Source of the DNA: Spirochaetota bacterium
Lineage (GTDB): Bacteria; Spirochaetota; UBA4802; UBA5368
Direction: 5' to 3'
Length of the DNA: 40,336 nucleotides
NCBI GenBank assembly: GCA_018263175.1
Contig: JADFDB010000001.1
Location: 64,260 to 104,595 of the forward strand
Both the position numbers and the translations under genes were made by a program. Under the pieces are notes generated by a model. That model was not told the DNA's origin. It ran no database searches and saw only the letters and a program-made list of their open reading frames with translations. Shown in pieces: positions 29,725 to 32,142 of this stretch. The stretch's first letter is position 1, and the number at the start of each line of letters is the position of its first letter.

Positions 29725-29943
29725 TCACCGCTTGTCGATGAATGGATCTTTTTTATCCTTCCGGGATTTTTCCGTTTCCCTGTCGATCGTTTTTCTGAAA
29801 ATAAAACGATAGTTGGTCGAACGATCGTTTTCGATTTGTTCGAGCGGCACCTCGTTCCGCTCCTTTTTTTTGCATCCGGACACGGCCCCGAACAGGGCGA
29901 GAGCGATGAGTATCGCGCAGCAAGTCCACATCGGGTTCTTCAT
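29725..29943 (-). CDS. Small lipoprotein
   Basis: 72 residues. The signal peptide ends in VSGC with Cys24, a good lipobox, followed by KKKER. The remainder is highly charged (RKTIDRETEKSRKDKKDPFIDKR) and without fold clues. I do not recognise the family. ATG 29943 has no close ribosome site; CGGAG lies twelve bases upstream. It converges on the hydrolase gene and is divergent from the flagellin-like gene. Confidence 0.65.
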   Translation of the reverse strand: MKNPMWTCCAILIALALFGAVSGCKKKERNEVPLEQIENDRSTNYRFIFRKTIDRETEKSRKDKKDPFIDKR

Positions 29944-30026: not shown

Positions 30027-30055
30027 TTGACATGGGAATGCCGGGCGGATATACT
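30027..30055 (+). promoter_or_regulatory. Strong sigma-70 promoter of the flagellin-like gene
   Basis: A perfect TTGACA (30027-30032), a 17-base spacer and TATACT (30050-30055), with transcription expected near 30062, 23 bases ahead of the ATG. It does not resemble a sigma-28 flagellar promoter. Confidence 0.75.
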
Positions 30056-30084
30056 CTATTCTGCGGGGATCGGGAAGGACTGCG

Positions 30085-30828
30085 ATGAAGATAAACACCG
30101 ATATGGTAAAACTTGTACGTGAAAGCCGCATAATGGGGAACTCCGGTGTGAAACGGAATCATGCAGCGGAGGCTGCCGCGGCCGTACTCGACAAACCGGC
30201 GGATACCGCACTCAGGAGGGTGGGCGACCGGCAGGCCGGGGAGCGCCGAATGACCGAGGCGCTCAGTATCGCCCAGATGGCGCAGCATGTGCTGCAGCGC
30301 GCGGTGGAGATATCATCGCGATTGCGCAACATGGCGATCGATGCGATGGTGTCGCGCCGGATCGATTACGAGGGAATCACCGGGCTCAGCGCGGAGCTGG
30401 CGGCCGCGCTGGCGGAGTATACCGGGAGGTTCGGCATGGAGGCGCTCCCTACCGCGGCGCTGAGCCCGAAACCAGTGCGCGGCAGCGGTGCGATGAAAGC
30501 GCCGGGTGGGGAGATACGCTCCGCATTCGCGGAGATGTCCGCTGTTACCGAGGACATCAGGGAAGGGAGGGCGGTCGATACCTCCCGTCTCGACGGCCTT
30601 CAGGCAAGGCTTAAGGACAGCTTCGCCGATACCGAGAAAACGGTTGCCCGGCTCACGAGAATGGGTCTGGAGATGGTGCGGGAATACGGCTCCGGCGTCG
30701 GTGTGGACAGGGAATACGCCGGCATGCGCACGGTCGTCCGGGAGTCCATCAGCAGCGATTCGAAAGCGGCCCTTATCGCGCAGGGAAACATCAACCGCGA
30801 AACGGTTGCCGCGCTGTTTCATGCATAG
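30085..30828 (+). CDS. Divergent flagellin-like protein
   Basis: 247 residues. The N-terminal ~95 follow flagellin D0/D1 spacing: MKINTDM at the start, NAME-like helical heptads, then ALSIAQMAQHVLQRAVEISSR and LRNMAIDAM, matching the flagellin region with a NAQ...LQ...R.LA pattern. The C-terminal end (ISSDSKAALIAQGNINRETV followed by AALFHA) matches the flagellin terminal helix (LAQANQxPQxVLxLL). The usual N-terminal SSGxRIxxAxDDAAG motif is replaced by VLDKPADTALRRVGDRQ, and the centre is only a short linker, so there is no outer filament domain. GGGAAGGA precedes the ATG. It may be a minor filament, hook-filament or separate secreted protein. The homology call is from pattern. Confidence 0.62.
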   Translation: MKINTDMVKLVRESRIMGNSGVKRNHAAEAAAAVLDKPADTALRRVGDRQAGERRMTEALSIAQMAQHVLQRAVEISSRLRNMAIDAMVSRRIDYEGITGLSAELAAALAEYTGRFGMEALPTAALSPKPVRGSGAMKAPGGEIRSAFAEMSAVTEDIREGRAVDTSRLDGLQARLKDSFADTEKTVARLTRMGLEMVREYGSGVGVDREYAGMRTVVRESISSDSKAALIAQGNINRETVAALFHA

Positions 30829-30881
30829 CCGCAGAGTGCCGCGCAACGCATTAACGAGTCAACGGCAAGGAGAATGAGATA

Positions 30882-31286
30882 ATGGAAGTGTTCGACGGTT
30901 TTATAGCGGCCATCGCGACGGAGTTCAAACTGAAGTTTCATAAAGACGGCCCCGGCGCGTATTCCACCAAGCTGAAATTCGACAATAACCGGTCGCAGCA
31001 GATCCTTATAACGCTGACCAAGGACGAGGTCGGCGACCGGATCATCAATTATTATTCGCCGATCGGCAAATTGAGGGGCGACTTCTGCGAGCTGTACAAG
31101 TACGCACTGCAGACGAACGCGACGCTGCCGCTCGGATCGCTCGCCCTGGTGGACGAAACGCTGGTGCTTCGTAATTCGATCCTTCTGCAAGATTGCGATC
31201 CGCGCCGGTTTCTCAAGTCGCTTACGTACATCGCCGCGAGGGCCGACGAGCTCGAGGAAATTCTTCTTAAAGACGACGCCTCGTAG
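30882..31286 (+). CDS. CesT/Tir-like type III secretion chaperone-like protein
   Basis: 134 residues, small and acidic (net charge by eye), with the alpha-beta-beta-beta-alpha layout of type III secretion chaperones: an N-terminal helix (FDGFIAAIATEFKL), a beta sheet (STKLKFDN, QQILITLTKD, RIINYYSPIG), then LYKYALQTNATLPLGSLALV with ETLVLRNSILLQ and a long C-terminal helix (FLKSLTYIAARADELEEIL). CesT members dimerise and bind secretion substrates. It begins 53 bases after the flagellin-like gene, after AAGGAG, so the two are probably one operon and the flagellin-like protein is the obvious candidate client. YbjN-like proteins share a similar fold and are the alternative. Confidence 0.6.
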   Translation: MEVFDGFIAAIATEFKLKFHKDGPGAYSTKLKFDNNRSQQILITLTKDEVGDRIINYYSPIGKLRGDFCELYKYALQTNATLPLGSLALVDETLVLRNSILLQDCDPRRFLKSLTYIAARADELEEILLKDDAS

Positions 31287-31293
31287 CGCGCCT

Positions 31294-31815
31294 TTACAGA
31301 TTATCGAGCCTTCCCCCGATCTTTTCCATCATTTCCCGGATAACCGGAAAATCATCGACGTCGTCGACGTGCAGGAATACGACCACGTTTTCGCGGACCG
31401 AAACAATCGCGCGGTCCGAGTTGTATCCGACAAAATCGGTGATCTTTTTAATTTCGTTTTTTGCCGAGGCCATGTCGTTATAGACGATTATATAGCAGAC
31501 GATGTCGTCGCCGAAGGGAGTGGCCGGGCGCGTGAGGATGGTCATGTGGATGTCGGAAACCCTGCCGGGATCGCCGTCGGGATATATCTCGCGGGTAAGC
31601 CTTTTAATGGCGGCACGGTCGAACTTCCAGGGGTTTTCCCTGAGTACCCGCTGGGCGAACGGCGGGATGTTGCCGTAGACAAAGCCCTGGGGGATGTCGC
31701 CGACGGCGAGGCGTATCTGGTCGATGATGGTGCCCTTGTATTCCGCGCCGGCGAGCGGCATAAGGAAGAAAAACACGAGCATGGTCGAAATTATGGGAAG
31801 AACGCGTTTTTTCAT
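31294..31815 (-). CDS. Exported protein of unknown function
   Basis: 173 residues from ATG 31815, which follows GGAGG perfectly. The signal peptide MKKRVLPIISTMLVFFFLMPLAGA predicts export to the periplasm. The mature part has IRLAVGDIPQGFVYGNIPP and a C-terminal beta-rich segment (DRAIVSVRENVVVFLHVDD) ending in a helix. I do not recognise the family. It converges on the CesT-like gene with seven bases between the stops. Confidence 0.7.
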   Translation of the reverse strand: MKKRVLPIISTMLVFFFLMPLAGAEYKGTIIDQIRLAVGDIPQGFVYGNIPPFAQRVLRENPWKFDRAAIKRLTREIYPDGDPGRVSDIHMTILTRPATPFGDDIVCYIIVYNDMASAKNEIKKITDFVGYNSDRAIVSVRENVVVFLHVDDVDDFPVIREMMEKIGGRLDNL

Positions 31816-32142
31816 GAGTACCTCCGGCAGTTCATATAGGCTGTACCGTCCGGCACCACCTGCATCCTTTTTCGGCATCCGGTCTGCGGGCCTACAGCGA
31901 AATTCCGGTTCGCAGGCATCGGCCGCCCGGCGCCCCTTTTTTTATTGAGACATAATATTTTCCTTGACGGATACCTAAAATGACGGTAGTTTCACGAATC
32001 GCGGTTCGGGTGCCTGATATACAAATGTTACTGCTCCGTCTGGCGTGCTCCTGCTGTGCTTTACGAGAGCGGCCCCGTATTTCAACCGTTACTTGCGGCG
32101 GCAATGAAATCAAAAGAATAGGGACATCTGGAGTATTTCCCA
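31816..32142 (+). promoter_or_regulatory. Gene-free region upstream of nrdD with a promoter candidate
   Basis: This 327-base gap holds TTGACG (31964-31969), a 17-base spacer and TAGTTT (31987-31992), a moderate promoter for nrdD with a leader near 145 bases. I see no NrdR-box pair, gene or clear hairpin. A seven-T run at 31937-31943 has no convincing stem. Confidence 0.4.

What the first reader, a model, noticed from the sequence alone, without database searches (positions are those of the whole stretch)
30027..31286. Flagellin-like protein paired with a CesT-like chaperone behind a strong sigma-70 promoter
Seen: D0/D1-like ends at both termini, no outer domain, altered N-terminal motif, a TTGACA-17-TATACT promoter and a small chaperone-shaped gene 53 bases later. 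Known: flagellar export normally uses FliS for flagellin and CesT-type chaperones for injectisome substrates. Inference: a non-filament or specialised secreted flagellin-like protein with a dedicated chaperone.
Basis: partly seen in the sequence, partly recalled or inferred. Interest (0 to 1): 0.65.

Follow-up and report, generated by a model that had tools for sequence, protein, structure and literature searches.

The report
Flagellin-derived protein with CesT-type chaperone
In an order of little-known spirochaete bacteria, a shrunken relative of the flagellum's building block is encoded beside a chaperone of the kind that normally serves injection needles, although almost none of these genomes shows a second, needle-type export gate; this suggests that the flagellar export channel also ships a specialised, non-filament protein.

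Summary
The 247-aa ORF (30085-30828) is a divergent flagellin derivative. Its 29-member family profile aligns end to end with spirochaete FlaB (hhalign 41.5; best of 60 column-shuffled controls 22.3), but it has lost the invariant D0/D1 polymerisation motif, replaced by a variable, probably disordered N-terminus. The 134-aa ORF (30882-31286) has the class I type III chaperone fold: AlphaFold pLDDT 86, nearly all top PDB matches are chaperones such as SycT, ExsC, SycH and SycE, 15 kDa, pI 5.2. The genes are adjacent in 25 of 40 genomes that carry both, in six of seven families of one Spirochaetota order, and unlinked only in the seventh. The TTGACA promoter lies upstream of 24 of 28 homologues, against 13 of 361 control genes. 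The genomes keep canonical flagellins, FlgL, FliS, FliW, CsrA and, with one possible exception, a single FlhA, so no injectisome was found. Best explanation: a non-filament flagellar type III substrate with its own class I chaperone, resembling Campylobacter FlaC but served by a CesT-type chaperone. Against exclusivity: the chaperone is far more conserved than its partner and occurs without it in other families. A fused-pair model gave no confident interface. Export and binding are inferred, not shown.

The parts
30027..30055 (+). sigma-70-type promoter TTGACA-N17-TATACT of the operon
   Evidence: conserved at -54 to -69 in 24 of 28 homologues against 13 of 361 control genes
30069..30081 (+). 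ribosome-binding region (around GGGAAGGACT; CAGGGAGGGA-like in most relatives)
   Evidence: GGGAGGG in the last 25 bases before the start codon in 21 of 28 homologues against 2 of 361 control genes; the window's own genus carries a variant
30085..30828 (+). divergent flagellin-derived protein, 247 aa, pI 9.5 (P0001)
   Evidence: variable, probably disordered N-terminus
30220..30354 (+). conserved helix aligned with flagellin ND1b (ERRMTEALSIAQMAQHVLQRAVEISSRLRNMAIDAM and flanks)
   Evidence: lowest entropy of the body
30769..30825 (+). C-terminal flagellin D0C-like signature (AALIAQGNINRETVAALFHA)
30882..31286 (+). CesT-fold class I type III chaperone-like protein, 134 aa, 15.2 kDa, pI 5.2 (P0002)

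Best explanation
A two-gene operon encodes (1) a flagellin paralogue stripped of the motif used for polymerisation, which is a non-filament substrate of the flagellar type III export gate, and (2) its class I (CesT-type) export chaperone. A strong sigma-70 promoter drives both. In the cytosol the small acidic chaperone, expected as a homodimer, would bind the basic, disordered N-terminal stretch of the flagellin-like protein (about residues 7-50), as CesT and SycE bind effectors, and present it to FlhA; the retained flagellin-like C-terminus may still engage FliS. The protein would then pass up the flagellar channel and, in a spirochaete, end in or beyond the periplasm without joining the filament. 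SHOWN: flagellin descent, loss of the core motif, chaperone fold, gene pairing, conserved promoter, one export-gate gene in nearly all genomes. INFERRED: binding, site of binding, export, destination, function after export.
For: Flagellin descent: profile-profile score 41.5 over 186 columns, global probability 94%, against at most 22.3 in 60 shuffles and 13.6 reversed; 20 sampled distant profile hits are all flagellins. Loss of the KLSSG..DDASGL core in every member. Chaperone fold: nearly all top PDB matches are SycT, ExsC, SycH, SycE, AvrPphF ORF1 and the like; 15 kDa, family pI 4.5-5.2. Pairing: adjacent in families f1, f2, f4, f5, f6 and f7 (25 genomes), including f2, where the partner has diverged beyond direct detection but keeps the promoter. 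Host machinery: flagellin 46/46, FlgL 46/46, FliS 39/46, FliW 42/46, CsrA 42/46, a single FlhA/SctV-type gate in nearly all. N-terminus predicted disordered (pLDDT 35-42, on the G162 homologue) and hypervariable.
Against: The chaperone-like protein evolves far more slowly than the partner (70% against 25% mean pairwise identity). It is present without the partner in three genomes of the order and in families f22, f38, f41 and f46, where it usually sits next to fmt. In f3 the genes are unlinked. The fused-pair model had pTM 0.44 and no confident interface. YbjN proteins share the fold without a secretion role (PMC5398634). The operon is not in a flagellar gene cluster.
Confidence: 0.5

Rival explanations
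1. The chaperone-like protein is a YbjN-type cytosolic adaptor or regulator with another, conserved partner; its adjacency to the flagellin derivative is inherited gene order. The flagellin derivative is exported, if at all, with the help of FliS.
For: Much stronger conservation than the neighbour; occurs next to fmt without the partner in other families; some family members hit YbjN and TY-Chap1 as well as CesT in Pfam; 2plg and DR1245, which are YbjN-like, rank among the structural matches; separation in f3; FliS present.
Against: Adjacency over six families while the neighbour diverges to about 25% identity; class IA chaperone genes are typically next to their substrate gene whereas ybjN genes are not near type III genes (PMC5398634); acidic chaperone and basic partner.
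Confidence: 0.23
2. The flagellin-like protein is a minor structural component of the periplasmic flagellum (junction, tip or sheath-adjacent subunit) that is incorporated in small numbers.
For: Flagellin-like D1 and C-terminal D0 sequence retained in most families; found only in flagellated genomes.
Against: The polymerisation core motif is missing in all members; FlgL is present separately; the promoter is sigma-70-type and the leader lacks the hairpin seen before flaB genes; f2 members have lost the C-terminal signature too.
Confidence: 0.17
3. A cytoplasmic decoy: the flagellin-like C-terminus titrates FliS or FliW and so tunes CsrA control of flagellin synthesis, with the CesT-fold protein controlling its availability.
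For: Retained C-terminus where FliS binds flagellin; FliW and CsrA present; flaB leaders carry CsrA-like hairpins; CesT is known to bind CsrA (PDB 5z38 among the matches).
Against: No direct evidence; C-terminus lost in f2; such decoys are not known to me.
Confidence: 0.07

Closest known systems
Campylobacter jejuni FlaC (secreted non-filament flagellin)
   Same: Short flagellin derivative (26 kDa native; window protein 26.6 kDa) largely without D2/D3, present beside canonical flagellins, varying gene context (PMC4863622, PMC5466977)
   Different: FlaC retains D0 and D1 domains and uses FliS; no CesT-type chaperone partner is described in the passages read. The spirochaete protein lacks the N-terminal core motif and sits beside a CesT-fold gene.
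Class IA type III secretion chaperones (CesT, SycE, SycT, SycH)
   Same: Predicted alpha-beta fold, about 130 aa, acidic, gene next to a candidate exported protein
   Different: No injectisome gate found; the partner is flagellin-derived; no Pfam match over the curated cut-off for the window protein
YbjN family (AmyR, DR1245, T110839)
   Same: Same fold, occurs in bacteria without an injectisome
   Different: ybjN genes are not next to type III-related genes in the survey of PMC5398634; here the neighbour is flagellin-derived
Flagellar chaperones FliS, FlgN, FliT
   Same: Serve flagellar export
   Different: All-helical, unlike the alpha-beta fold here (own knowledge); FliS is present separately in these genomes
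Spirochaete FlaB flagellins
   Same: Colinear profile match over D1 and C-terminal D0
   Different: Core motif lost, probably disordered N-terminus, different promoter and leader

Membership tests
Bacterial flagellin (Flagellin_N / Flagellin_C) | Pfam match over the curated cut-off | tested here: not met
   No flagellin hit for the window protein, nor among the 25 families listed for 29 relatives
Bacterial flagellin (Flagellin_N / Flagellin_C) | Common descent over D1 and C-terminal D0 | tested here: met
   hhalign 41.5 against shuffled maximum 22.3; 20 sampled phylum-wide profile hits are all flagellins
Bacterial flagellin (Flagellin_N / Flagellin_C) | Conserved N-terminal core KLSSGxRINxAGDDASGLA | tested here: not met
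   Absent in all 29 family members; conserved in the host's flagellins
Bacterial flagellin (Flagellin_N / Flagellin_C) | Builds the filament | not testable with these tools
   Needs proteomics of purified flagella
[quoted passage not shown]
   Model pLDDT 86, pTM 0.79; SycT 1.8e-4, ExsC 6.4e-4, SycH 9.5e-4
[quoted passage not shown]
   15.2 kDa, pI 5.17; family 4.46-5.17
[quoted passage not shown]
   Window protein 14.2 bits against 27 for CesT_Tir_1; best relative 2.3e-4
[quoted passage not shown]
   Adjacent in 25 of 40 genomes with both; unlinked in f3; no partner seen in other families. That the neighbour is a substrate is not shown.
[quoted passage not shown]
   Fused-pair model gave no confident interface, pTM 0.44
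YbjN family | Sequence match to YbjN | tested here: inconclusive
   5 of 31 relatives hit PF10722, best 0.0047, fewer and weaker than CesT_Tir_1

The most novel reading that the evidence does not exclude
A class I (CesT-type) chaperone works for the flagellar rather than an injection-type gate, and delivers a flagellin-derived effector-like protein through periplasmic flagella, so that flagellar export in this spirochaete order doubles as a secretion route with its own chaperone class.
Probability: 0.35. Interest if true: 0.7.

Novelty: new variant of a known kind. Interest (0 to 1): 0.5.

Why it matters
Flagellar export is known to use helical chaperones (FliS, FlgN, FliT), and alpha-beta class I chaperones are tied to injectisomes. 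A conserved pairing of a class I-type chaperone with a flagellin derivative, in genomes with essentially one export gate, would link the two chaperone worlds. It would also point to a second secreted-flagellin lineage, distinct from Campylobacter FlaC, and to a possible non-Sec route into the spirochaete periplasm.

Tried and rejected
Single-sequence searches: Pfam and PDB gave nothing for the flagellin-like protein, and for the chaperone only a weak CesT hit plus ribosomal protein L2 chance matches. hhalign against near-identical flagellins was uninformative, so a diverse set was built. PDB profile hits to designed coiled coils and viral spikes are compositional and were not used as evidence. 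'Replacement of FliS, FliW or FlgL' was rejected, as all three are present. 'Injectisome effector' is disfavoured because one FlhA-type gate is found in nearly all genomes (G170 has a second, shorter match that I did not resolve). Apparent loss of the partner in f2 was rejected: a divergent orthologue with the same promoter sits in place. Complex modelling on an in-frame read-through of the G162 pair gave pTM 0.44 and no usable interface. One scan of the genome collection found only one further relative, on a contig of the same length as, and with the same protein as, G082. Literature searches found no description of such a pair.

Full report
WHAT IS THERE. The window lies in a draft spirochaete genome (2.65 Mb, 73% complete). 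Two genes on the + strand, 30085-30828 and 30882-31286, are separated by 53 bases, with a TTGACA-17-TATACT promoter at 30027-30055. Neighbours are housekeeping genes: a penicillin-binding protein, a DegQ-type protease, an alpha/beta hydrolase, and the anaerobic ribonucleotide reductase with a radical-SAM protein. There is no flagellar cluster nearby.

THE LARGER PROTEIN IS A FLAGELLIN DERIVATIVE. Alone it matches nothing in Pfam. A family of 29 gives a profile that, besides its own members, hits the C-terminal end of FlaB-length ORFs across the phylum; 20 such loci were fetched and all are flagellins. Profile-profile alignment with 20 diverse flagellins scores 41.5 over 186 columns. Reversing the profile gives 13.6, 60 column shuffles give at most 22.3, and the global alignment runs from end to end. 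The matching parts are the first residues (MKI.TD against MIINHN), a helix at about 46-90 aligned with ND1b, and the C-terminal A..AQGNI..E.A..L aligned with the D0 signature. The segment between the first residues and that helix is not flagellin-like: residues 7-50 are the most variable part (entropy 3.03 against 1.55 for 51-90), rich in P, S, T, A, G, Q and N, and the first 20 residues were predicted with pLDDT 35-42 in the one model made (on the G162 homologue). The KLSSG..DDASGL core of the flagellins is missing.

THE SMALLER PROTEIN HAS A TYPE III CHAPERONE FOLD. The AlphaFold model (pLDDT 86, pTM 0.79) has the order helix, four strands, helix, two strands, helix. Its PDB matches are almost all class I chaperones, with the YbjN-like 2plg and DR1245 among them. 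Twenty-six of 31 relatives hit Pfam CesT_Tir_1 (best 2.3e-4), 17 TY-Chap1, 5 YbjN and 5 CesT; the window protein itself stays under the cut-off. It is 15.2 kDa and acidic, while the partner is basic (pI 9.5).

THE PAIR. In 46 genomes of the order both genes are found in 40, one in 4, neither in 2 (my tally). They are adjacent, flagellin-like gene first, in 25 genomes of families f1, f2, f4, f5, f6 and f7. They are unlinked in all 15 of family f3 with both, which fits a single separation. In f2 the partner of genus g4 is too diverged for direct detection but aligns to the family at 45.6 (shuffled maximum 18.1) and keeps the promoter. Three genomes have only the chaperone-like gene (G139, G166, G207), one only the partner (G158); some of these are incomplete. 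Outside the order the chaperone-like gene occurs in families f22, f38, f41 and f46, mostly beside fmt and without a recognisable partner. Mean pairwise identity is 25% for the partner and 70% for the chaperone-like protein.

THE PROMOTER. Exact TTGACA lies at -75..-46 in 24 of 28 homologues and in 13 of 361 control genes; GGGAGGG precedes the start codon in 21 of 28 against 2 of 361. The G-rich ribosome-binding sequence is not unique to this gene: 2-16 exact CAGGGAGGG...ATG sites per genome were found in eight genomes, above the reversed-pattern control in most but hardly in G071 (5 against 4). The promoter stays with the gene in f3, where the location differs. Flagellin genes have a different leader, with a CsrA-like hairpin.

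HOST MACHINERY. Flagellins and FlgL-profile matches occur in all 46 genomes (44 over the FlgL cut-off), FliS in 39, FliW and CsrA in 42. FlhA-type genes were found in 43 genomes: single in 41, two contig fragments in G213, and a second shorter match in G170. So the flagellin-like protein is an addition, and an injection apparatus is not in evidence.

MECHANISM. The most economical reading is a flagellar type III substrate with a class I chaperone bound to its disordered N-terminus. What is shown stops at descent, fold, pairing, promoter and host machinery; binding, export and destination are inferred. The slow evolution and wider occurrence of the chaperone-like gene suggest further clients or an older role, and YbjN proteins prove that the fold alone does not mean secretion (PMC5398634). 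An attempt at a complex, made by reading through the stop codons of the in-frame G162 gene pair so that both proteins form one chain (alignment), gave pTM 0.44 and no confident interface; it neither supports nor refutes binding.

COMPARISON. Campylobacter FlaC is the nearest functional analogue: a short, secreted, non-filament flagellin that uses FliS (PMC4863622, PMC5466977). It keeps D0 and D1, and no CesT-type partner is described in the passages read. I found no paper describing a flagellin derivative paired with a class I-type chaperone, but the library is open-access only.

Noticed in passing
L001, L113-L141 (flagellin leaders): flaB genes of this order have a conserved hairpin of the form GCTATC-ANGGA-GATAGC before the ribosome-binding site TTCAAGGAGGA, which looks like a CsrA double site; in many genomes fliW and csrA lie next to flgL.
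   Followed up: partly
G042, G102, G143 and five other genomes: CAGGGAGGG ribosome-binding sequences recur 2-16 times per genome, mostly above the reversed-pattern control, before unrelated genes.
   Followed up: partly
window 31294-31878 (-): Conserved neighbour on the opposite strand in several families (cluster c9); 194 aa, no Pfam match, possible signal peptide.
   Followed up: no
window 29725-29943 (-): Small ORF with a lipoprotein-like start (VSGCKKKE), divergent from the operon; short ORFs lie at the same place in relatives (cluster c8).
   Followed up: no
G087:C42:30038-30739: Flagellin-like gene carries an in-frame TAG in this assembly: pseudogene or sequence error.
   Followed up: no
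G170:C31:68296-69300: Second, partial match to the FlhA/SctV family in one genome.
   Followed up: no
L085-L096 (family f3): Where the flagellin-like gene is unlinked from the chaperone it is often followed by two conserved genes of unknown function (about 270 and 210 aa, the second lipoprotein-like).
   Followed up: partly
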